In this document: positions 1 to 8,806 of the stretch, in pieces
How the letters are laid out: each line of letters begins with the position of its first letter
Position numbering within the stretch: the stretch's first letter is position 1
From: an uncultured Prevotella sp.
GTDB lineage: Bacteria; Bacteroidota; Bacteroidia; Bacteroidales; Bacteroidaceae
NCBI GenBank assembly: GCA_934217675.1
Contig: CAKQCV010000078.1
Span: 1 to 10,425, forward strand
Length of the DNA stretch: 10,425 nt
Direction of reading: 5' to 3'
Notes under the pieces: generated by a model
The model's input: only the letters and a program-made list of their open reading frames with translations
What the model was told of the DNA's origin: nothing
Database searches by the model: none
Position numbers and translations under genes: made by a program

Positions 1-882
1 GGCTGGATGGTTATTCTGAACATAGTACATTGGAGCTTCTCCGGTGTTCTTCTTCCGCTTCTTTTCGATGCAGTCAATTGTGACGGATTTTTGCAGGATT
101 GCATCTCCGCAATATCGCTCGTTGGAGAGCATATTCATGATCATGCCCTTGCTAAAGCTGATGGTTTTGCCAGGAATATCATAGTTCTCAGCCTGCATCA
201 TCTTGGAGATTTTGTCCACGGTTTCCCCAGCCAGATAGAGGTTGAAGATGCGTTCCACGATGACCGCTTCGCTCGGTACGATCTCCGGCTCACCGTCAGC
301 GCCCTTTCTATAGCCGAGGAACCGCTTGTACATAAACACTGGAGTTCCTTCCTCGAACTTCTTGCGGACGCTCCATGTGATATTCTTGCTGATGCTCTCG
401 GATTCGGACTGTGCGAAGCCAGCATAGATGACCAGATACAGTTCACTATCTGTCTTGAGTGTATCGATCTGCTGCTCCTCAAAGTAGACGCCGATGCCTT
501 TGGACTTGAGCATTCGGACATAGTCAAGGCAGTCCACCGTATTTCTGGCAAATCGGGATACGGACTTAGTAATGATGTAATCGATCTTTCCGGCCAGACA
601 ATCGTTGATCATTTTGTTGAACTCAGGCCGCTTGTCGGCTCTTGTGCCGGACTTGCCCTCATCAGCGAACAGGCCTGCGAAGCACCAGTCTTTACGACTG
701 GCGATCATCTCGGTGTACACCTTCTTTTGGTTGGCATAGGAGACGAGCTGTTCTTCGCTATCTGTCGAGACTCGGCAGTATGCCGCCACTCTTTTCTGCC
801 TGTATTTTTCTTTGTCTACCGTCATGGAGCGTTTCGGCTCTATGACAGTGACAATTTTCTTAGGGACTTTCGTTACTTCCAT
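1..882 (-). CDS. Large serine recombinase, partial (C-terminus beyond window edge)
   Basis: A site-specific DNA recombinase of the resolvase/invertase superfamily, expected to cut and rejoin attachment sites of a mobile element through a covalent phosphoserine. The 294 visible residues start with a ~30-residue N-terminal extension, then the catalytic domain with YCRVS (nucleophile Ser39) and the conserved ITKSVSRFARN helix motif. After that comes the start of the Recombinase domain (FLGYRKG near residue 195, NERYCGD near 265). The reading frame is still open at base 1, so the zinc ribbon and coiled coil are not seen. The ATG at 882 has a GGAGG 12 bases upstream, a rather long spacing. It overlaps the 3' end of the preceding gene by 23 bases, which points to translational coupling. 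It is the third of three consecutive recombinase genes. Family assignment is very secure; its att sites cannot be inferred. Confidence 0.95.
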   Translation of the reverse strand, partial: MEVTKVPKKIVTVIEPKRSMTVDKEKYRQKRVAAYCRVSTDSEEQLVSYANQKKVYTEMIASRKDWCFAGLFADEGKSGTRADKRPEFNKMINDCLAGKIDYIITKSVSRFARNTVDCLDYVRMLKSKGIGVYFEEQQIDTLKTDSELYLVIYAGFAQSESESISKNITWSVRKKFEEGTPVFMYKRFLGYRKGADGEPEIVPSEAVIVERIFNLYLAGETVDKISKMMQAENYDIPGKTISFSKGMIMNMLSNERYCGDAILQKSVTIDCIEKKRKKNTGEAPMYYVQNNHPA

Positions 883-1741
883 CGTCCAGCGTGACCTCCG
901 TTTCTGTCTTAGTATGAAGCACCACTCTGCCTTGTTCGCCGAGCGTGATGCATGAGGCGAGGGCGGTAAAGTAATCTCGATTGAATTCATCCTGCGTGAC
1001 CATCGTATGTGCCAGTTTCCTTGCGAGCGATACTGTGAGGTTCAACTTGGCATTGCTTTGCTCGTACATCAGCGCTGCCAACTCGATGGTCTTTTCAATG
1101 ATGTACTCCTCGTTTGGAGCGTCACGCTCCAGCTCCAGGGCGATATCGTTTCCTACCTTGGTGACCTTCGCGTCTGGTTCATACCGTTTCCTGGGCTTCG
1201 GCTGGAGCAGATGGTCATTGAGGATGACCCGATTGATGAGGACGGTAATGGTTTCGATGAGTTGGGTATCGCTGATGCGAACTCTGATGCCGCAGTCATC
1301 GTTAGTGCAGTTCCAGCTCTCTCGAATGCGATGTTTCATACTGACACGACGCTTCATTGGCTGACCGCAGTTGTCGCACCGAACGAAGTCACGGAGCAGG
1401 TCGATGGCATCGTTTTCCTTTTCGCAGGTATTGCGCTGCCGCGCCGTTTTCAGGCTGACTGCCGCTTCATACATATCTTCATCTATGATGGGGTCGTATT
1501 CTTCAGTCCCAATATATTTGGCGTTGTCGATGATTCTTGCGATACGGGCTTTATCCCATGTGGTGGTTCTTTGTGTATATGGGATCTGGCGACCGGTCAG
1601 TTCTTCCGCAATTGCTTTGAGAGAAGCGCCATCCAGATATGCCTTAAAGATCTCTCGGATGATCTCTGCTTCCTCAGTTGAGATGACCGTTCTGCCATTT
1701 CGCATCGTGTATCCGTATGGGATGTATCGTATCTTTTTCAT
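860..1741 (-). CDS. Serine recombinase-like protein lacking the catalytic domain
   Basis: This 293-residue protein begins directly at the Recombinase (DNA-binding) domain: PYGYTMRNG at residues 8-16 and NAKYIGTE at 73-80. A zinc ribbon follows with Cys122, Cys125, Cys145 and Cys150, then a helical, charged C-terminal part. The whole N-terminal resolvase domain with the nucleophilic serine is absent, so it should bind DNA or partner recombinases but not cut DNA alone. The absence looks genuine: the ATG at 1741 has a close AGGAGG (5 bases away) that overlaps the stop codon of the upstream recombinase gene, and no resolvase-like frame precedes it. It overlaps the next recombinase gene by 23 bases. 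Short recombinase genes between two full ones are known from some Firmicutes integrative elements; a role as an accessory subunit of a multi-protein integrase is inference. Confidence 0.9.
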   Translation of the reverse strand: MKKIRYIPYGYTMRNGRTVISTEEAEIIREIFKAYLDGASLKAIAEELTGRQIPYTQRTTTWDKARIARIIDNAKYIGTEEYDPIIDEDMYEAAVSLKTARQRNTCEKENDAIDLLRDFVRCDNCGQPMKRRVSMKHRIRESWNCTNDDCGIRVRISDTQLIETITVLINRVILNDHLLQPKPRKRYEPDAKVTKVGNDIALELERDAPNEEYIIEKTIELAALMYEQSNAKLNLTVSLARKLAHTMVTQDEFNRDYFTALASCITLGEQGRVVLHTKTETEVTLDDGSNESP

Positions 1742-1750
1742 GAGTGCCTC

Positions 1751-3292
1751 CTATATGCGTTCTCTGAATCGAAGCCCGCCAAGGAGTTCCACGGACATTT
1801 CGTCCTCTTTATTGATTTGGATGGACTTCACAATTTCCAGAAAGAGCTTCTCATCGAATGCTTCGAGGGGTTCTTCCAGTTCGAAGATGAGCATTTTTAG
1901 TCTCTTGACTTCCTCAAGCATGATGGCGGCTTTTGAATTGAACTTCTCCTGTCTGATGTCCTTAAGTTTTGCCAGCTCTGCGCCGATCTCGTTGGCTTGC
2001 GCCTGATAGACTTCAGGGGCGAGGTATCCCTTGGACCGGAGTTGTTCAAGCATGAGCAGTTTCGCATTCAACTCAGCGATGCTCTTGCTTAAATCACGCG
2101 CAGCCAGATTGTTTCGCTTCATAGCTGCCAATGTCATTTCCAGCCGGCTGATGACCTGTCCGAGAATGTTATCTTCAGAGAACCGCAGTTTGTTCACCAT
2201 GGAGATGAAGCCGTCGTAGATTCTTTCTTCGCTGTAGTAGTTGGAATCGCAGGCCATGCTGTCATCTTTGTGAAGAGAGCATACCCACTTCACAGTCCCC
2301 GACACGATTCTTCGCCTATAGAAAGAGCCACACTCAGAACACTGAATGCGGCTCGTAAGCGGATAGATATTTTGTGTTGTTGCTTTGGCGAAGACATCCT
2401 TGCGCTTTTCAATAAGGGTCTGAGCGGCATCGAATACATCCTTTTCGACGATGCCGGGGTGGGTACCCTTTGCGTAGAAGCGATCTTCCTGTCCACGATT
2501 GGGGTGTTGGTTGAAGGGAACGGTGGTTTCTCGGTAGGTCTTTTGATAAAAGCTGTCGCCGATGTACCTTTCGTTCTTCAGAATATATGCCACGCGACTT
2601 GGTCGCCAGATTGCCTTTCCGGCCTTGGTAGGGATATTGAGTTTGTTCAGCTCTCTTGCAATCTCACTTGTGGAGAAGCCCTGCAAGTACAGAGCGAAAA
2701 TATTCCGCACAATGCCTGCTTCCGGCTCGTACACGGTCAACATCTTATCGACTAACCGGTATCCGTAAGGGGCGTTGCTGTCCACATACTCGCCAAGTTC
2801 CATGCGTTTGACGATTGAGAGACGCTGGTTCATAGAGATGGACTGCGATTCCTCCTGCGCCAGAGCAGAGAAGGTATTAAGAAGCATCTCGTCACCCATA
2901 GAGAGCGTTGAGATGCCTTCCTTTTCAAACTGTACGCCCACACCCAGCAACTTGAGCTTTCTTACATAGGCCAGAGCGTCTTTTGTGTTTCGTGCGAAGC
3001 GAGAGATGGACTTCGTTATGATGAGGTCAATGTGCTTGAGCTCACACATGCGGATCATCCGCTGAAATTCATCACGGGTTTCACTTTTCATTCCGGTAAG
3101 CCCTTCATCGGCGAAGATGTCCACCAGTTCCCAATCGTCGCGTGCTCCGATATATTTTTTGTATGCTCGGATCTGTGCGGCATAGGAGTTGAGCTGATCA
3201 GCGGAGTTGGAAGACACTCGGCAGTAAGCTGCAACCTGCATTTTCTTCGTGCTCTGCCTTGTGATAGGGGTGATGAGCCGTACTTCAGGCAT
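1751..3292 (-). CDS. Large serine recombinase, full length
   Basis: A 513-residue site-specific recombinase. The resolvase catalytic domain (about 17-165) carries YCRVS with nucleophile Ser27, FADEGLTG (60-67) and ITKSISRFARN (92-102) with the active-site arginines. The Recombinase domain follows (about 172-300; APYGYR, NERYIGD). A zinc ribbon has Cys318, Cys321, Cys338 and Cys348. A long coiled coil (about 375-480) is the type that controls integration versus excision in this family. Length and domain order are typical. The ATG at 3292 has AGGAGG 8 bases upstream. It is the first gene of the recombinase triplet, and its stop overlaps the ribosome binding site of the next gene. A strong palindrome in its leader suggests regulated expression. 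Substrate attachment sites are unknown. Confidence 0.97.
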   Translation of the reverse strand: MPEVRLITPITRQSTKKMQVAAYCRVSSNSADQLNSYAAQIRAYKKYIGARDDWELVDIFADEGLTGMKSETRDEFQRMIRMCELKHIDLIITKSISRFARNTKDALAYVRKLKLLGVGVQFEKEGISTLSMGDEMLLNTFSALAQEESQSISMNQRLSIVKRMELGEYVDSNAPYGYRLVDKMLTVYEPEAGIVRNIFALYLQGFSTSEIARELNKLNIPTKAGKAIWRPSRVAYILKNERYIGDSFYQKTYRETTVPFNQHPNRGQEDRFYAKGTHPGIVEKDVFDAAQTLIEKRKDVFAKATTQNIYPLTSRIQCSECGSFYRRRIVSGTVKWVCSLHKDDSMACDSNYYSEERIYDGFISMVNKLRFSEDNILGQVISRLEMTLAAMKRNNLAARDLSKSIAELNAKLLMLEQLRSKGYLAPEVYQAQANEIGAELAKLKDIRQEKFNSKAAIMLEEVKRLKMLIFELEEPLEAFDEKLFLEIVKSIQINKEDEMSVELLGGLRFRERI

Positions 3293-3434: not shown

Positions 3435-3593
3435 TCAGTGGGCTAATACGATATCTGCGCCGGTAAGCTTCATATAATATTTTTTCGCCCTGGCATATTC
3501 CTTTTCTGTGATCAACTCCTGCGCAAGGAGATCCTTCAGCATATCAACAATAAAGAGAAAATTGGCGTTCTTGGTGTTCTTGTTTGACAGCAC
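3435..3593 (-). CDS. Small SHOCT-like helical protein (52 aa, GTG start)
   Basis: A 52-codon gene starting with GTG at 3593, with AGGAGG 7 bases upstream and stop TGA at 3435-3437. The core LKDLLAQELITEKEYARAKK (residues 19-38) fits the short C-terminal (SHOCT) pattern: a leucine-rich helix, a turn with I-T-E-x-E, and a second basic helix. There is no signal peptide or membrane segment. It lies just before the recombinase triplet and is read in the same direction. In my knowledge of clostridial elements, small SHOCT-type genes accompany serine recombinases, and a role as a helper such as a directionality factor is inference. The gene is missed if only ATG starts are considered. Confidence rests on the ribosome binding site, family-like motif and position; no search was possible. 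Confidence 0.75.
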   Translation of the reverse strand: MLSNKNTKNANFLFIVDMLKDLLAQELITEKEYARAKKYYMKLTGADIVLAH

Positions 3594-3935: not shown

Positions 3936-4235
3936 CTAAACTGACCAGTGGCTGGCACCACCCTCCGGGAATCTCACCCCTCCGAGGATCTCTCCGAGCT
4001 GCCCCCATTGCTTGAGTCTGTGGCTGGACAGTGAGTACAGGTCAACGGTATCATTGCGAGACAACTTGCCAAAGCTGCTTTGGGCTGGGTGGGTATCGCT
4101 CGGCCACCTTAGTAGGCCGTCTTTTATGCGGAGTTCTCCGCACAGGTGGGTCTTGGCGCACCCGCCGCATCGCTGCTCCCCTTCGTCGGGGGCCCGCTGA
4201 CTGACGTTATCAGTCGCCGGATATTCAGTTTTCAA
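3936..4235 (-). other. Palindrome-rich region: candidate structured RNA or 99-aa TTG-start ORF
   Basis: The stretch after the sigma-like gene contains many short perfect inverted repeats in a row: GACTGA/TCAGTC (4199-4215), CCCC/GGGG (4178-4191), a perfect 16-bp TGCGGAGTTCTCCGCA (4127-4142), GGCC/GGCC (4102-4118), CCAAAGC-T-GCTTTGG (4069-4083) and GTGG/CCAC (3948-3961). CTCCGAG is also directly repeated (3980, 3992). This density suggests a folded RNA on the minus strand, ended by the terminator at 3809-3875. The same stretch is open as a 99-codon frame starting TTG at 4235, with CGGCAKTHLCGELR and ending GGASHWSV. It has reasonable codon use but no ribosome binding site. A second overlapping frame (ATG at about 4171, 38-39 codons, with GGGGAG upstream) adds to the doubt. 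I do not recognise either protein. Confidence 0.45.
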
Positions 4236-4289: not shown

Positions 4290-4736
4290 TTAACAACCCT
4301 CCGCGTCCAAATTATTTTTGATTTTTTTCAAAATGCGCTTCTTCCGCTCATGGACGGCCTGTTGAGATATTCCCAGCTTCTGCGCGCATTCCCTTTCGGT
4401 GCGGTTTTTGAAGTAAAGTTCATAGACCAGCTCGTAGTCTTTAGGAGGAAGCAGATCCAGAACATTACGCAAGGACTGGACTACCATGTCCTCAATGGCC
4501 TGATTTTCGGGCGTATTGTCATAATCTATAAACTCGTGGAACCGCTCGAACCCCTCATTTTCGCCGCCAATCAGCGAACTCATCTGTGTCTCATGCTTAA
4601 AAAAGCGTTCCGTGCTATCTTCGATATTCCATTTCGTTCGCCTGTAGGTCTGAAAAACTTCCTTGGTTACTTGGATAAGTTCATATTGGCCGGTCATGGT
4701 ATTGTAAACATTGAGAACATATACTTTTTCGGACAT
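4290..4736 (-). CDS. Sigma-70 region 4-like regulator
   Basis: A 148-residue protein whose C-terminal half (about 80-142) resembles sigma-70 region 4: LRNVLDLLPPKDYELVYELYF, then a helix-turn-helix ending ISQQAVHERKKRILKKI. There is no recognisable region 2, so it is shorter than a complete sigma factor. Such proteins are common in clostridial and enterococcal conjugative elements, where they are annotated as sigma-70 family or YlxM-like regulators. The N-terminal part (VYVLNVYNTMTGQYELIQVTK) is a small uncharacterised segment. The ATG at 4736 has AGGAG 9 bases upstream, and that site lies in a long stem-loop preceded by a leader ORF, so translation is probably controlled. It probably activates element genes nearby; the target promoters are not known. 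Confidence 0.85.
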   Translation of the reverse strand: MSEKVYVLNVYNTMTGQYELIQVTKEVFQTYRRTKWNIEDSTERFFKHETQMSSLIGGENEGFERFHEFIDYDNTPENQAIEDMVVQSLRNVLDLLPPKDYELVYELYFKNRTERECAQKLGISQQAVHERKKRILKKIKNNLDAEGC

Positions 4737-4740
4737 GATT

Positions 4741-4797
4741 TTGATCTCCTTTTGATTTTTTGAAGTTGATGGGGTTTTTCAAAAAATCGGAGATCAA
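4741..4797 (-). promoter_or_regulatory. Stem-loop sequestering the sigma-like gene's ribosome binding site
   Basis: On the minus strand TTGATCTCC plus GATTTTTTGAA (4797-4778) pairs with TTCAAAAAATC (4764-4754) and GGAGATCAA (4749-4741). This gives 20 base pairs with a single 4-base bulge and a 13-base loop. The 3' arm contains the GGAG ribosome binding site of the gene starting at 4736, so in this fold initiation would be blocked. The leader ORF's stop codon lies in the 5' arm. Confidence 0.8.
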
Positions 4798-4838
4798 GGA
4801 TATTGAGCGATATAGGGCTCCCAAAGGCTGGTCAGCAT
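4794..4838 (-). CDS. 14-codon leader peptide upstream of the sigma-like gene
   Basis: The frame ATG (4838) to TGA (4794-4796) encodes MLTSLWEPYIAQYP. It has a strong GGAGG 5 bases before the ATG. Its stop codon is inside the 5' arm of the stem that hides the downstream ribosome binding site. A ribosome finishing or stalling on this ORF would cover that arm and free the GGAG of the sigma-like gene, as in the translational attenuation known for erm-type leaders. The C-terminal Tyr-Pro-stop is the kind of context that slows termination, and Trp6 could contribute to arrest. The coding evidence is only the ribosome binding site, the position and the logic; stalling signals and inducers are unknown. 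Confidence 0.6.
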   Translation of the reverse strand: MLTSLWEPYIAQYP

Positions 4839-4866
4839 TGTTACCTCCGTTAAGGGGCAACAGCAC

Positions 4867-4930
4867 AAAAAAGCCGGGCATTAAGAAGATAGGTACACTT
4901 TGCAGTAACCTTTTCCTCTCAATGCCCGGC
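4867..4930 (-). terminator. Terminator/attenuator with ~38-base loop and mini-ORF
   Basis: Perfect 10-bp stem GCCGGGCATT (4873-4882) / AATGCCCGGC (4921-4930), followed on the minus strand by six T (4867-4872). The 38-base loop carries AGGAAAAGG, 10 bases later GTG, and a five-codon frame (GTG TAC CTA TCT TCT TAA, 4881-4898) whose stop touches the 3' arm. It ends the ImmA/zinc-ribbon transcript. It could also serve as a transcription attenuator for the leader ORF and sigma-like gene, which lack an evident promoter of their own in between. Confidence 0.75.
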
Positions 4931-5011
4931 AATTTGGTGACTCATAGACTTCCTAATCTAAGGACCCGTGGCTCGGTGCGATCAGCTTTCTTATTCTGTT
5001 GTCGATTGTTC

Positions 5012-5218
5012 TTATGTGTAAGTATGGCAGGATGCTCGGTAGTAGGTAGCTCTCCTGCGGATTGGGGTACGATAACTCAGGTCTATCTCAACAATCTTTC
5101 GACAGTTGGGACACTTCAACTCAATGATGCCCGAAGTGGGAGTCACTTTATCAAAAATGCGCCAGTCGCATTTCGGGCAACGCTTTACAACTTTGATTTC
5201 ATACGAGTTAGGTTTCAT
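5012..5218 (-). CDS. Small zinc-ribbon protein
   Basis: A 68-residue protein with two CxxC knuckles (CPKC at 14-17 and CPNC at 36-39) separated by 18 residues that are likely a beta hairpin. This is a classic zinc-ribbon layout, similar in outline to the Com-type small proteins of phages. The C-terminal tail is basic (RRRATYYR). Its ATG at 5218 overlaps the TGA of the ImmA/IrrE-type gene as ATGA, so the two are almost certainly translated together. It is the last gene of the minus-strand operon before the terminator at 4867-4930. Zinc binding is well supported; the partner, nucleic acid or protein, is not known. Confidence 0.8.
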   Translation of the reverse strand: MKPNSYEIKVVKRCPKCDWRIFDKVTPTSGIIELKCPNCRKIVEIDLSYRTPIRRRATYYRASCHTYT

Positions 5219-5958
5219 AGTATACGGTCCTCCTCATCCATTTCGACTCGAACCAAACTATAAGGGTCGGTAAGATCATTTCTTTTCAAAAGGCCAAGCT
5301 GCATCATTCGAATGGACAGTGCTGTTTTAGAAGCCCCCATAAATGATGCCATCGCTTCGAACTTCTTGTAATCGGCAGGGGCAAACACTCGGTTTAGAAG
5401 GCGCATCTGGGTTCCAAGGCCGAATCGCTCCATGCTTCGAACTACACATTCGGGCGGAAGTAAAATCATGGCAGCCAGTGTTTCAACCTGCCACTCCTCC
5501 CAATCCCCCTTTCCTCTGTTGCTTCGATAACAACAGTGAACGGAACGCCCACTTGCTTGGGCTCCGTAGTCGTGCGGAAACAGCATTTTCAGAATATGGT
5601 GACAGCTCTCGTGGGAAACGGTATAGTTCCTGCGGCCTATATTGGCACCCTCTTTCATGAGATCACTTTCAATCAAAATGGTTTTTCCATCAAGCATATA
5701 ATACTGTTCTTCCGTGGAGCTTGGATCTTCAGGGAACACCTCGACGCCTATATCGCAAGAAGATGTCAGGCCGATTTTTTCGCCGTTCAGAGATAATCGA
5801 GCATAATCGATACGAAGCCCCAGAAGCTCTTGGCAGAGGAAGTCGATATCTACTCGCTCCAGCGCTTGGCCTGATATAGCCGGAAGTCTCTTATATGCTG
5901 CGATGACTCTCTCACCGATAGTCTCGAGGTCATTGCGTGATAGATATTTCAATTGCAT
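5215..5958 (-). CDS. ImmA/IrrE family metallo-endopeptidase
   Basis: A 247-residue cytoplasmic zinc protease of the family that cleaves repressors of mobile elements (ImmA-ImmR) or stress regulators (IrrE-DdrO). The zinc motif is HESCH (His116, Glu117, His120), and Glu159 in WQVETLAAMILLP is the third ligand. The region after 170 (ECVVRSMERFG, then a helical part) fits the family's C-terminal domain. The start is uncertain. The ATG at 5958 lies only 2 bases after AGGAG, while a TTG two codons later (5952) has ideal 8-base spacing and would give MKYLSRND. It follows the 5964-6221 gene by 5 bases and overlaps the zinc-ribbon gene by 4. The likely substrate is the XRE protein at 8542-8760 or the LexA-like repressor; this is inference from context. 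Confidence 0.92.
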   Translation of the reverse strand: MQLKYLSRNDLETIGERVIAAYKRLPAISGQALERVDIDFLCQELLGLRIDYARLSLNGEKIGLTSSCDIGVEVFPEDPSSTEEQYYMLDGKTILIESDLMKEGANIGRRNYTVSHESCHHILKMLFPHDYGAQASGRSVHCCYRSNRGKGDWEEWQVETLAAMILLPPECVVRSMERFGLGTQMRLLNRVFAPADYKKFEAMASFMGASKTALSIRMMQLGLLKRNDLTDPYSLVRVEMDEEDRIL

Positions 5959-6254: not shown

Positions 6255-7496
6255 TTACTGATACATAAGTCCAGGCATGGTCACCAACTGCCTACCGTCA
6301 TCTGGGATCTTCAAGTCACCCATAAGCACGGCGTAGGAAATGGCTCGTTTGCCGAACCTTTTTCGAATGTCCTCAACAGCGTCCTCCAGACGGATGCGGC
6401 GATCTCGCTTCTGATGATCCACGAACATGGAGAGCTGCTCTGCTTCTTTTTGCGATACCAAATCAATACCACGGATAGTGACGGCTCGAATCGGCTTGTC
6501 CCACCGATATCGTTCCATAAACAGGTGAAAGCCTGCCCCTGCGATCTCATTGGGGAGCTGGGTTCTGAATGGGAGCTTACACTGGTATTGTGAACCATAC
6601 AGGTCATTTGCCCGGACGGAGACTTGCACACCACAGGCCATCAACTCGTGGACACGGAGTCGATGCCCAACATCCTGGCTCAATTCCAGCATGGCTCGGA
6701 AAACTTCTTCTGGTGTTTGCAGGTCAGCGGTGCAGGTGATCCCGTGTCCGATGGACTTGACGGGGCTGACAAAGTCCTTATGCATGACACGAGAAGTATC
6801 CGTTCCATTTGCATATCTCCAGAGTTTGATGCCATTGATCCCTAGCATGTGCTGTAACGTTTCCGGGGAGGCCTTTGCTACATCGCCGATGGTGCGGATC
6901 CCGTATTGAGCCAGTTTGTTTTCTGTGGACCTTCCCACATAGAGTAGCTCGGCAGCATCGAGCGGCCAGATCTTTTCCTTGAAGTTATCCTGCCTGATTT
7001 CGGTGATTGCATCTGGCTTCTTCATGTCCGACCCGAGTTTGGCAAAGATCTTGTTGAACGACACGCCGATGCTCACCGTCAGGCCAAGCTCATCCTTTGT
7101 TGTCTGCCGAATCGCCTCGGCGATCTCCATGCCTGTTCCGCAAATACTGGAGCCGGTCACATCAAGCCAGCACTCATCCATGCCATACGGTTCAACAAGA
7201 TCCGTATATCGGTGGTAGATTTGGCGAGCCAGCTTAGAATACTTGAGGTACTGGTCGTACTGAGGCGGTACAACAATCAGTCCTGGGCAAAGCTGCCGAG
7301 CTTCCCAATTTACCATGCCTGTTTTTACTCCAGCTTTCTTGGCTAAGTCCGACTTGGCTAAGACGATACCATGACGCTCTTCCGTCGAACCGCACACCGC
7401 AACAGGCTTCCCTTTGAGCTCAGGATCGAGCATCATCTCAACGGATGCGTAGAAGGAGTTCATGTCACTGTGCAGAATAACACGCTCGCTATCCAT
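6255..7496 (-). CDS. Y-family (DinB/UmuC-type) translesion DNA polymerase
   Basis: A 413-residue error-prone DNA polymerase. The palm carries HSDMNSFYASVE with catalytic Asp11 and the probable steric gate Tyr16, and YGMDECWLDVTG with Asp107 and Glu108. A little-finger domain follows (about 240-350). A canonical beta-clamp binding motif QLSMF sits at 354-358, then a helical tail. Length is normal for the family. The ATG at 7496 has AGAGGTG 8 bases upstream. The gene is divergent from the LexA-like repressor gene and has its own TTGACA/TATTAT promoter, so repression and SOS induction by that repressor are likely. It leads an operon with the small 85-residue protein, the ImmA-type peptidase and the zinc ribbon. 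Mobile elements of Firmicutes often carry such UvrX/UmuC-like polymerases. Confidence 0.96.
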   Translation of the reverse strand: MDSERVILHSDMNSFYASVEMMLDPELKGKPVAVCGSTEERHGIVLAKSDLAKKAGVKTGMVNWEARQLCPGLIVVPPQYDQYLKYSKLARQIYHRYTDLVEPYGMDECWLDVTGSSICGTGMEIAEAIRQTTKDELGLTVSIGVSFNKIFAKLGSDMKKPDAITEIRQDNFKEKIWPLDAAELLYVGRSTENKLAQYGIRTIGDVAKASPETLQHMLGINGIKLWRYANGTDTSRVMHKDFVSPVKSIGHGITCTADLQTPEEVFRAMLELSQDVGHRLRVHELMACGVQVSVRANDLYGSQYQCKLPFRTQLPNEIAGAGFHLFMERYRWDKPIRAVTIRGIDLVSQKEAEQLSMFVDHQKRDRRIRLEDAVEDIRKRFGKRAISYAVLMGDLKIPDDGRQLVTMPGLMYQ

Positions 7497-7653: not shown

Positions 7654-8472
7654 ATGAGTAAGAGCAAAGCTAAAATTCTTTCTCTCCCGATAACGAATCA
7701 CGCGAACTATAATGCAGAAACGGAGCGTCAGGAAAATGTTATCGGAGCTCGCATTGATGAAGCACGACGCAAAGCTGGACTCAGCCTTGTCGACTTCAGC
7801 GCACTTTTGCGGCAGTATGGGGTAACAATGTCCCCCAGCGGCATCAATAAGTGGGCAAAGGGCAGCGCGCTGCCCAACGCCTATCAGATGATGGCCGTCT
7901 GCCATGCGCTCGATCTGGATGTGGATGTTTCTTATTTTTGCAGTAGTCATACGCCGGTGCTCAATGATACCGGTTTGGCAAAGGTCAAAGAGTACAGGGA
8001 TGACCTGATTGCTTCAGGAAGATATAAGCCGCAGCCAAAGGTGGTCAGCATTCTCAAGTACATAGATATGCCTGTGAGCAACCTTGCGGTATCTGCTGGT
8101 ACGGGTGAGTTTCTTGAGGAAGGGAACTTTGAGATGGTTAGTTTCCCTGAGAAGTCTGTTCCGAAAGGTGCCGATTTTGGCGTGCGGGTTTCTGGTGACA
8201 GCATGGAGCCGGTCTATCATGACGGTCAGATCGTTTGGGTAGAGGAATGCGAGACTCTGGCCGTTGGTGAAGTCGGCATCTTTGTCTATGATGGCGATGG
8301 CTATTTGAAGGTCTACAGCGAGCAGGAGCCAGATGAGAACCAAAGGGACGCATTTACTGACAGCTATGGTTGCCTGCACATGCAGCCTGTGATGCTGTCC
8401 TATAATCAGGCATACGCGCCCAAGACGATCATGCCAGACTCGAGATTCCAAATCGTAGGGCGCGTCCTTTAA
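7654..8472 (+). CDS. LexA/CI-like transcriptional repressor with S24 autoprotease domain
   Basis: A 272-residue two-domain repressor. The N-terminal helix-turn-helix spans about 28-95 (IDEARRKAGLSLVDFSALL and SPSGINKWAKG), preceded by a ~25-residue basic extension. The C-terminal S24 peptidase domain has the cleavage site Ala148-Gly149 (AVSAGTGEF), catalytic Ser183 in GDSMEP and Lys219 in GYLKVY. All catalytic elements are present, so RecA-stimulated self-cleavage after DNA damage is expected for the family. The ATG has an AAAAGGCGG about 10 bases upstream and a strong promoter. It is divergent from the polymerase operon, which it probably represses. The HTH is of the XRE/phage-repressor type rather than the winged helix of true LexA, so this is an element-encoded SOS-responsive repressor. 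Confidence 0.93.
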   Translation: MSKSKAKILSLPITNHANYNAETERQENVIGARIDEARRKAGLSLVDFSALLRQYGVTMSPSGINKWAKGSALPNAYQMMAVCHALDLDVDVSYFCSSHTPVLNDTGLAKVKEYRDDLIASGRYKPQPKVVSILKYIDMPVSNLAVSAGTGEFLEEGNFEMVSFPEKSVPKGADFGVRVSGDSMEPVYHDGQIVWVEECETLAVGEVGIFVYDGDGYLKVYSEQEPDENQRDAFTDSYGCLHMQPVMLSYNQAYAPKTIMPDSRFQIVGRVL

Positions 8473-8487
8473 GTACAGAATATTGGA

Positions 8488-8526
8488 CTACATTTCCTTT
8501 AGAATTGATGGCAGGAAAGAATGTAG
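8488..8526 (+). repeat. Imperfect stem-loop before the XRE gene
   Basis: CTACATT (8488-8494) pairs with AATGTAG (8520-8526) and, after a 2-base bulge, CTTT pairs with AAAG, closing a 15-base loop. It lies between the LexA-like gene and the ribosome binding site of the small HTH gene. No T-run follows. It may be an operator or an mRNA hairpin that sets relative expression of the two genes. Confidence 0.4.
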
Positions 8527-8541
8527 AAAGGCGGGGATTAC

Positions 8542-8760
8542 ATGGATACGATAGCAAGAGTGATGGAGTTGGCTAACGAGCGTAACCTCTCGCTTTTCAA
8601 GCTATCTCAGTTGTGCGATGTTTCCTATTCAACTTTGAAGAATGCTGAGATGCGCGGAAGTCAGTTAGGGGTTCCTACAATCGAGCGCATCTGCGCTGCG
8701 CTGGGGGTTACATTGAGCGATTTTTTTGCAGAGTCGGGTCGTGCATATACAAAATCATAA
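8542..8760 (+). CDS. Small XRE (Cro/CI-type) HTH protein
   Basis: A 72-residue DNA-binding protein consisting of little more than one HTH domain: LSLFKLSQLCDVSYSTLKNAEMRG (16-39) is the helix-turn-helix, and PTIERICAALGVTLSDFF (45-62) gives the typical closing helices. AGGCGGGG lies about 6 bases before the ATG. It follows the LexA-like gene by 69 bases in the same direction, probably co-transcribed, and ends 12 bases before a strong terminator. Candidate roles are a Cro-like antagonist of the LexA-like repressor or an ImmR-like target of the ImmA/IrrE peptidase encoded across the promoter region. Family certain, role inferred. Confidence 0.9.
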   Translation: MDTIARVMELANERNLSLFKLSQLCDVSYSTLKNAEMRGSQLGVPTIERICAALGVTLSDFFAESGRAYTKS

Positions 8761-8772
8761 GCCGATAGTATA

Positions 8773-8806
8773 AAAGAGAAGGTCGCCATATGGCGACCTT
8801 CTCTTT
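8773..8806. terminator. Bidirectional terminator, perfect 34-bp palindrome
   Basis: A perfect palindrome with 17-base arms, centred on CATATG (8787-8792). The outer ends are AAAGAGAA and TTCTCTTT, giving a GC-rich core with U-rich 3' side on both strands. It sits between the stop of the HTH gene (plus) and the stop of the degenerate gene (minus), so it ends convergent transcripts. Confidence 0.9.

What the first reader, a model, noticed from the sequence alone, without database searches (positions are those of the whole stretch)
4736..4838. Leader peptide plus ribosome-binding-site-masking stem controls a sigma-like regulator
Directly visible: a 14-codon ORF (MLTSLWEPYIAQYP) with a strong GGAGG ends with its stop codon inside the 5' arm of a 20-bp stem. 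The 3' arm of that stem contains the GGAG of the next gene. This is the geometry of translational attenuation known from erm leaders, but here the output is a mobile-element sigma-70-like regulator rather than a resistance gene. It would couple ribosome state (antibiotic, amino acid or polyamine stress) to element activation. The Tyr-Pro-stop ending is compatible with a TnaC-like termination arrest.
Basis: partly seen in the sequence, partly recalled or inferred. Interest (0 to 1): 0.78.

Follow-up and report, generated by a model that had tools for sequence, protein, structure and literature searches.

The report
Arrest-type leader peptide for mobile-element activators
A tiny peptide gene in front of a mobile element's activator gene looks like a ribosome sensor: its ending (Trp, six residues, Tyr-Pro-stop) recurs in related gut Clostridia elements, and it sits where a ribosome paused at its end would uncover the activator's hidden start signal.

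Summary
The leader (4838-4794, minus strand, MLTSLWEPYIAQYP*) ends inside the 5' arm of a 20-bp stem whose 3' arm holds the Shine-Dalgarno (SD) of a sigma-70-region-4-like gene. Of 30 loci found by the regulator protein alone, 26 carry a leader ending W-x6-Y-P-stop (1 in 9000 shuffles); the other four carry R-[A/D]-P-P, a RAPP-like arrest motif, at the same place. Tyr, Pro, Ala and stop codons vary synonymously, so the peptide is selected. Stem arms covary. A gene-independent peptide pattern hits 13 of 391 Clostridia genomes (reversed control 0); 13 of 14 matches are leaders before SD-masked genes, mostly sigma-like with unrelated N-termini. In folding models a ribosome at the leader's end opens the SD on average, though not in every locus. 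Best reading: an apparently unreported Pro-stop arrest peptide that lets mobile-element activators be made when ribosomes pause there. Arrest and its signal are inferred, not shown. A zinc-ribbon, weakly Com-like protein encoded just upstream in many loci is a rival or partner.

The parts
4794..4838 (-). Leader ORF MLTSLWEPYIAQYP* (14 codons plus TGA); member of a W-x6-Y-P-stop leader family
4844..4848 (-). SD (GGAGG) of the leader
4839..4862 (-). Hairpin H2 whose 3' arm contains the leader SD
4867..4930 (-). Hairpin H1 (GCCGGGCATT...AATGCCCGGC) followed by six T: terminator or attenuator candidate between the zinc-ribbon gene and the leader
   Evidence: not listed by the scan (loop too long for its rule)
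4778..4797 (-). 5' arm of the masking stem; contains the leader's TGA
4741..4764 (-). 3' arm of the masking stem (bulge 4753-4750); contains the regulator's SD
4746..4750 (-). SD (AGGAG) of the sigma-like regulator
4290..4736 (-). Sigma-70 region-4-like regulator, 148 aa
3965..4057 (-). Rfam pemK RNA (RF02913), recurrently just downstream of the regulator gene
3435..3593 (-). 52-aa ORF, weakly SHOCT-like, between regulator and recombinases
   Evidence: below Pfam cut-off
1751..3292 (-). Large serine recombinase 1 (513 aa)
860..1741 (-). Recombinase-domain protein 2 (293 aa; no resolvase catalytic domain found)
1..882 (-). Serine recombinase 3, runs off the window
5012..5218 (-). Small zinc-ribbon protein (CxxC...CxxC), weakly Com-like; possible RNA-binding partner or rival activator
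5215..5958 (-). ImmA/IrrE-like metallopeptidase candidate (HESCH read by eye; no Pfam hit; 45% identical in a container alignment to the annotated ImmA/IrrE protein of L056)
6255..7496 (-). Y-family DNA polymerase (Pol IV/UmuC type)

Best explanation
A short leader peptide is translated just upstream of a mobile-element sigma-like activator. The activator's SD is locked in a stem whose 5' arm starts at the leader's stop codon. [quoted passage not shown] The parked ribosome occupies the foot of the 5' arm, the SD opens and the activator is translated. Without leader translation, or when release is fast, the stem re-forms and the activator stays off. Supported here by comparison and folding: the translated and selected peptide, the covarying stem, the geometry, and recurrence before regulators with unrelated N-termini. 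Inferred: ribosome arrest, its modulation by a signal sensed in the exit tunnel or by termination/rescue capacity, and that the activator drives the neighbouring recombination genes.
For: (1) Of 30 non-duplicate loci selected by regulator homology only, 26 have W-x6-Y-P-stop in the 110 nt examined before the gene (23 of 27 if near-identical L024-L027 are collapsed); shuffles give it once in 9000. (2) Over 43 distinct leaders (17 pattern-selected) positions 1-2 of Tyr and Pro are fixed by the search while third positions vary: TAT29/TAC14, CCA20/CCG17/CCC4/CCT2, stops TGA16/TAA16/TAG11; Ala, not demanded in the 26 others, is 41/43 with four codons. (3) A gene-independent pattern gave 14 matches in 13 of 391 Clostridia genomes (the search centre gave two, one already known), reversed control 0; 13 of 14 are leaders 46-62 nt before an SD-masked ORF. 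(4) In 26 non-redundant loci (the window represented by L001) own arms pair at -20.1 against -10.8 kcal/mol swapped; 0 of 10000 permutations as low. (5) SD unpaired probability over 43 loci: mean 0.16 free, 0.56 with a ribosome at the stop, 0.16 at the W codon, 0.21 at codon -5; at the stop it rises by more than 0.1 in 36 of 43 (printed values). (6) The four loci without it carry R-[A/D]-P-P; in 13 class II loci a ribosome stalled there raises mean SD opening from 0.03 to 0.54. Later-fetched L084 has W-x6-YP, L085 R-G-P-P and L086 R-S-P-P. (7) Precedent: NSP-stop and NAP-stop peptides stall with the stop codon in the A site; SecM arrest frees the masked secA SD (PMC10987492, passages).
Against: No expression, profiling or toeprint data. 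Trp has one codon, so synonymous change cannot test it, and UGGN can pair with the Ala-codon region (4 of 4 pairs in 23 of 43, 3 of 4 in 18). Modelled opening at the stop is incomplete (window 0.20 to 0.39) and does not rise by more than 0.1 in L002, L018, L031, L032, L062, L065, L066; in L002, L024, L028, L031, L046, L066 a ribosome at codon -5 opens the SD as much or more; free SD is not well masked (0.33-0.51) in L002, L018, L019, L051, L053, L054. L076 keeps the stem with neither motif; L039 shows neither in the 90 nt held. Three further sigma genes on L040 and L086 have neither motif within 130 nt. L049, L060, L063 leaders precede genes without a Pfam region-4 match. L059 has no in-frame start in my search; L008, L011, L063 have only non-ATG (TTG or GTG) starts near, L028 and L056 a GTG. 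No promoter-like site on this strand lies between 4838 and 5218, so H1 would have to be read through.
Confidence: 0.74

Rival explanations
1. Plain translational coupling: any ribosome that finishes the leader opens the stem; the peptide sequence does not matter.
For: The geometry suffices for coupling; stop-to-start distance is 36-62 nt.
Against: The peptide end is conserved at residue level with synonymous changes, at a fixed W-to-stop spacing, and the pattern finds it before genes with unrelated N-termini. The replacement motif in other loci is arrest-type.
Confidence: 0.12
2. Com-type control: the zinc-ribbon protein encoded just upstream binds the RNA and opens the stem, as phage Mu Com does for mom (Com function recalled).
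For: 27 of 42 class I loci with enough upstream DNA have a CxxC...CxxC ORF ending 92-450 nt before the W codon. Weak matches to phrog_6417 'translational regulator' in 6 of 10 proteins at E <= 0.01; L056 to 'gpCom control of modification' E 9.6e-5.
Against: 15 of 42 lack it, as do the 4 class II loci examined. No Com family appears among the Pfam matches of the 10 proteins at E <= 0.05, and no close solved relative was found. It does not explain peptide conservation; it could act together with the leader.
Confidence: 0.1
3. Transcription attenuation at H1/H2 is the real switch and the leader is secondary.
For: A run of at least five T lies 26-95 nt before the leader in 25 of 29 loci given to (L056 missed through a wrong start), after strong hairpins in the folds. 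H1 region and following spacer are more complementary than permuted (-24.0 against -20.2 kcal/mol, 0 of 10000).
Against: Does not explain the conserved peptide or the covarying SD stem; own pairing ranks first of 25 in only one locus, and the complementarity is weak in the window.
Confidence: 0.08
4. The leader region is an N-terminal extension of the regulator (196-aa gene calls).
For: Five of the 20 database proteins read (P0002, P0003, P0005, P0008, P0009; 195-196 aa) run through the region in another frame.
Against: In the window that frame does not join the regulator's frame (83-aa ORF), while the leader frame and stem persist.
Confidence: 0.02

Closest known systems
[quoted passage not shown] PMC10987492, passages)
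   Same: C-terminal Pro before the stop; arrest with the stop codon in the A site
   Different: Those precede secA/secDF and were found in a search for secretion monitors; here most leaders are 11-16 codons by the nearest start, carry Trp at -9 and precede sigma-like regulators of mobile elements of Clostridia
TnaC (E. coli; PMC8429421, passages)
   Same: Short leader; essential Trp and terminal Pro; stall with Pro in the P site and stop in the A site
   Different: TnaC needs Trp12, Asp16, Ile19, Pro24 and free L-Trp and acts through Rho; here spacing is W-x6-Y-P, no conserved Asp, and the output is an SD-masking stem
RAPP-type arrest peptides (ApdA, ApdP, ApcA; PMC10951233 abstract and passages, PMC12992588 passages and section 13)
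   Same: Class II leaders carry R-[A/S/D/G]-P-P; RAPP and RGPP arrest in several contexts, RSPP and RDPP are reported as partially permissive
   Different: The cases listed there precede sec, copper, TonB and similar genes, and RGPP/RAPP uORFs were reported absent in many Gram-positives including Bacillota; here they precede regulators in mobile elements of Bacillota
Drug-induced leaders (erm and cat, recalled; toiL-topAI, PMC12121999 abstract; CTnDOT tetQ, a table entry and a reference title in PMC5418344)
   Same: uORF stalling frees a masked SD
   Different: No drug response shown here; different peptide and target
Phage Mu Com/mom (recalled)
   Same: Zinc-finger protein gene directly upstream; masked translation start
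   Different: No conserved leader peptide recalled for mom

Membership tests
Translational attenuation by leader peptide | Translated uORF directly upstream | tested here: met
   SD, start and synonymous codon variation; translation itself not measured
Translational attenuation by leader peptide | Downstream SD masked by conserved structure | tested here: met
   (SD unpaired below 0.3 in 37 of 43)
Translational attenuation by leader peptide | Ribosome stalling on the leader | not testable with these tools
   needs toeprint or profiling
Translational attenuation by leader peptide | Inducing drug or metabolite | not testable with these tools
   none identified
Pro-stop arrest peptides | Pro as last residue with arrest at the stop | tested here: inconclusive
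   Pro-stop in 26 of 30 loci selected without it; arrest untested
TnaC | Trp12/Asp16/Ile19/Pro24 spacing | tested here: not met
   W and P are 8 residues apart, no conserved Asp
TnaC | Arrest depends on free L-Trp | not testable with these tools
   none
RAPP-type arrest peptides (class II leaders only) | R-[A/S/D/G]-P-P in an open uORF | tested here: met
   13 of 14 loci (8 with an ATG, 5 with GTG or TTG only; their SDs not examined), L076 lacks it; two more
RAPP-type arrest peptides (class II leaders only) | Demonstrated arrest | not testable with these tools
   none
Com/mom translational activation | Com-family protein encoded upstream | tested here: inconclusive
   weak PHROG matches, no Com family in Pfam matches

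The most novel reading that the evidence does not exclude
Clostridia mobile elements use two interchangeable arrest motifs, an undescribed Pro-stop peptide (W-x6-Y-P-stop) and RAPP-like R-[A/S/D/G]-P-P, each placed so that the stalled ribosome unlocks a sigma-like activator. Element activation thereby becomes a readout of ribosome release, rescue or drug state. Most W-x6-YP leaders are too short to leave the exit tunnel (tunnel length recalled), so the signal would be sensed inside the ribosome rather than by secretion pulling.
Probability: 0.55. Interest if true: 0.88.

Novelty: new variant of a known kind. Interest (0 to 1): 0.8.

Why it matters
It offers a compact, testable candidate arrest peptide, and RAPP-like leaders in Bacillota where RAPP/RGPP uORFs were reported missing, and it would tie a mobile element's decision to express its activator to the state of the translating ribosome. 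If a ribosome-targeting drug or a termination defect triggers it, that would explain how such stresses could switch on recombination modules in gut Clostridia. The leader is also a genomic marker for such regulators, which are otherwise unrelated at their N-termini.

Tried and rejected
DNA searches of 4700-5020 against plasmid and phage collections found nothing. Viral contig scans with the window protein or alignment A1 found nothing; alignment A2 gave L034 and L035. Rfam lists no family at the leader at its gathering threshold. An N-terminal-extension reading was rejected. An RF2/UGA-only leader was rejected (three stops used). A link to plasmid records through the L059 regulator found none. 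The pemK RNA discovery paper is not held. Ten paper searches listed no report of this leader; 'IAKYP' occurs in two papers, on rice lysine acetylation and bone stem-cell proteomics (listing only). The Tn916 antitermination paper (PMC11658703, passages) did not bear on the leader. No structure was predicted: the regulator's fold is not the question. Container alignments A3 and A4 of unrelated neighbours serve only for family tallies and hold 59 of 80 downstream and 49 of 76 upstream ORFs.

Dropped rows: L023, L029, L030 as duplicates of L001, L005, L006; L006 (regulator frame broken, ATA start) and L015 (SD GGGGGT) failed my SD filter although both have the leader; L047 and L057 are spurious; L058 was not examined further; L061 is the contig of L034, L067 repeats L066, L043 and L052 repeat L056. 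L039 shows neither leader in the 90 nt held. Only the best or chosen plasmid and phage hits were fetched (H1-H7 except none withheld, H11, H13), not H8-H10, H12 or H14-H26. In one search four of 29 chosen loci (L012, L046, L056, L064) were dropped for lack of a T-run in range. Of the 103 proteins, 20 were read.

Full report
What is there. On the minus strand, in transcription order: a Y-family polymerase, an 85-aa ORF, a metallopeptidase candidate, a zinc-ribbon protein, hairpin H1 with six T, hairpin H2 over the leader SD, the 14-codon leader, a 20-bp stem, the sigma-70-region-4-like regulator, an Rfam pemK RNA, a weakly SHOCT-like ORF and three serine recombinase-type genes, the last running off the window. 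The leader's TGA is in the 5' arm and the regulator's SD in the 3' arm; the fold is far more stable than shuffles (z -4.5, longer region: z -8.4; 0 of 200 shuffles each).

Is the leader real? In 26 of 30 the stretch examined before the gene holds W-x6-Y-P-stop; dinucleotide shuffles gave it once in 9000. Collapsing the near-identical L024-L027 leaves 23 of 27. Examples: MLTGFWEPYIAQYP* (L001), MLGGWQASIAKYP* (L002), MPFFQVWQCSIAKYP* (L005), MIVYWLPYIAKYP* (L017), MRLWQTYIDSYP* (L012). In 43 distinct leaders (17 of them pattern-selected, which inflates the counts; W, Y, P and stop are demanded by the search) position -4 is Ala in 41, -5 is Ile in 35, -3 is Lys in 29, and the third positions of Ile, Ala, Lys, Tyr and Pro vary while all three stops occur. 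This is the mark of selection on a peptide.

Is it tied to this regulator family only? No. A degenerate DNA pattern for W-x3-I-A-[KQE]-Y-P-stop, which knows nothing of the gene, gave 14 matches in 13 of 391 Clostridia genomes and none for the reversed pattern; the centre genome gave two, one of them the known L001. Thirteen of the 14 (all but L047) are leaders followed 46-62 nt later by an ORF with a masked SD (L043 and L052 repeat the folded L056). A phylum-wide sample gave 2 of 398 genomes, again the centre and one new locus, L077, with a clear leader and stem. Viral contigs gave 3 and 9 stretches for two patterns (one shared): L059-L067 have the motif before an SD-masked ORF, L059 without an in-frame start in my search; L057 is spurious, L058 not examined. 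The downstream proteins fall into several families with unrelated N-termini; of 15 tested with Pfam, 12 match sigma-70 region 4 at E <= 0.01 (7 above a gathering score), while L049, L060 and L063 do not.

The stem. In the folds the SD is in or beside a stem that begins at or near the stop codon; its mean unpaired probability is below 0.3 in 37 of 43 loci and 0.33-0.51 in six. Mean z of the stop-to-start stretch is -4.8. In 26 non-redundant loci the 5' arm pairs with its own 3' arm at -20.1 kcal/mol and with other loci's arms at -10.8; none of 10000 permutations reached the own value, and the own arm ranks first of 26 in 14 loci. Pair types at the SD-flanking positions include T-A, A-T, G-C and C-G. 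With a ribosome at the stop, the mean SD opening rises from 0.16 to 0.56; at the Trp codon or codon -5 it stays at 0.16 and 0.21. The picture is uneven: 14 of 43 exceed 0.7 at the stop, the rise is more than 0.1 in 36, seven loci (L002, L018, L031, L032, L062, L065, L066) do not rise by that much, and in six (L002, L024, L028, L031, L046, L066) a ribosome at codon -5 opens the SD as much or more (printed values). The window goes from 0.20 to 0.39.

A second class. The four loci of the 30 without W-x6-YP (L003, L021, L022, L033) carry R-A-P-P or R-D-P-P at the foot of the stem; none of the 30 has both (search for R-[A/S/D/G]-P-P, shuffle expectation 0.005 per locus). Homologues of L022 in 58 genomes (7 genomes with hits) add eight loci, seven with R-[A/S]-P-P and one, L076, without. 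With L035 and the regulator beside tet(O) on L040, 13 of 14 loci examined have the motif, at -59 to -85 from the gene. Two more homologues fetched late fit too: L085 has R-G-P-P and L086 R-S-P-P, while L084 has W-x6-YP; but three other sigma genes on L040 and L086 have neither motif within 130 nt. Arg is written AGG, AGA, CGA, CGT or CGC. Eight of the 13 ORFs have an ATG, five only GTG or TTG; some start before the terminator hairpin (by eye). RAPP stalls ribosomes by preventing peptide bond formation (PMC10951233, abstract and passages). RDPP and RSPP are partially permissive for arrest, ApdA and ApdP arrest is not rescued by EF-P in the reconstituted system, and RGPP/RAPP uORFs were reported absent in many Gram-positives including Bacillota (PMC12992588, passages and section 13). 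That a known arrest motif takes the place of W-x6-YP is the best indirect evidence that the latter is an arrest motif too. Precedents for arrest at Pro-stop are NSP-stop and NAP-stop (PMC10987492, passages) and TnaC (PMC8429421, passages).

What it controls. Of 59 ORFs from the 4.5 kb downstream of the regulator, 28 match Recombinase, 20 Resolvase, 11 PemK_toxin, 5 Phage_integrase and 2 Tn916-Xis; of 49 upstream ORFs, 8 match Peptidase_M78, 4 Peptidase_S24 and 2 IMS (chosen from 80 and 76 ORFs of 26 loci). The Rfam pemK RNA lies downstream of the regulator in 11 of 12 loci (in L031 it overlaps the end of the called ORF), in 9 of 16 others and in the window. An annotated example is Monoglobus NZ_OY725736.1: Pol IV, two hypotheticals, ImmA/IrrE, leader, sigma-70 factor, PemK/MazF, HTH genes, site-specific integrase (leader read). 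So the likely output is an integration/excision and toxin module; that step is inferred.

Mechanism and doubt. The chain is: read-through of H1, leader translation, pause at the stop, stem opening, activator made. Supported by comparison or folding: selection on the leader peptide, the covarying stem, the geometry. Inferred: the pause, its trigger and the output. The main rival or partner is a zinc-ribbon protein encoded just upstream in 27 of 42 class I loci, weakly Com-like by PHROGs but not by Pfam. Plain coupling does not explain the conserved peptide. The Trp has a single codon and could also be held by RNA pairing with the Ala region, which is the main gap in the peptide argument; the synonymous changes at Tyr, Pro, Ala and stop argue against an RNA-only reading there.

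Novelty. Ten literature searches (listed under Tried and rejected) found no report of this leader or of arrest-peptide control of such regulators; the library holds only open-licence papers. I file it as a new variant of translational attenuation: known logic, apparently unreported peptide and target, with two interchangeable motifs. After the recount my confidence in the best explanation moved from 0.75 to 0.74, because the folding support is more uneven than first written.

Noticed in passing
window 3965-4057 (-) and loci: Rfam pemK RNA (RF02913) sits just downstream of the sigma-like gene in many loci, before PemK toxin or recombinase genes; it may be part of the regulator's target region.
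   Followed up: partly
window 4839-4930 (-); L002, L005, L018, L034, L036, L044, L066: Apical loops of hairpins H1 and H2 upstream of the leader are reverse complements that covary in several loci (for example GCTTTTAAAGC with GCTTTAAAAGC in L005, GCTTTTAACGC with GCGTTAAAAGC in L002), suggesting a kissing loop or alternative fold; weak in the window.
   Followed up: partly
L042, L045, L051, L060, L062: The 5' arm of H1 (CCGTATGAAGC in L045) is also complementary to sequence after its T-run (GCTTCATACGG), an odd order for an antiterminator.
   Followed up: partly
window 5012-5218 (-) and 26 other loci: A small zinc-ribbon gene with weak Com-like matches recurs directly upstream of the leader.
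   Followed up: partly
L040 and L041 5824 upstream, L056, L086 1204 upstream: Sigma genes beside tetracycline-resistance genes on Enterococcus, Monoglobus and Streptococcus phage records have a masking stem and an RSPP leader; the Monoglobus plasmid carries both leader classes.
   Followed up: partly
L085 upstream of 1474 (Subdoligranulum OY725857.1): An R-G-P-P motif, reported as the most stable arrest variant in PMC12992588, lies at -60 before a GTG-started sigma-like gene without annotation.
   Followed up: partly
P0002, P0003, P0005, P0008, P0009: Database gene calls of 195-196 aa read the leader region in a wrong frame as an N-terminal extension of the regulator.
   Followed up: yes
window 7654-8806 (+): An S24-type repressor gene and a Cro-like gene face the Pol IV operon, followed by a 17-bp perfect hairpin (8773-8806); looks like an SOS-type control region.
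   Followed up: no
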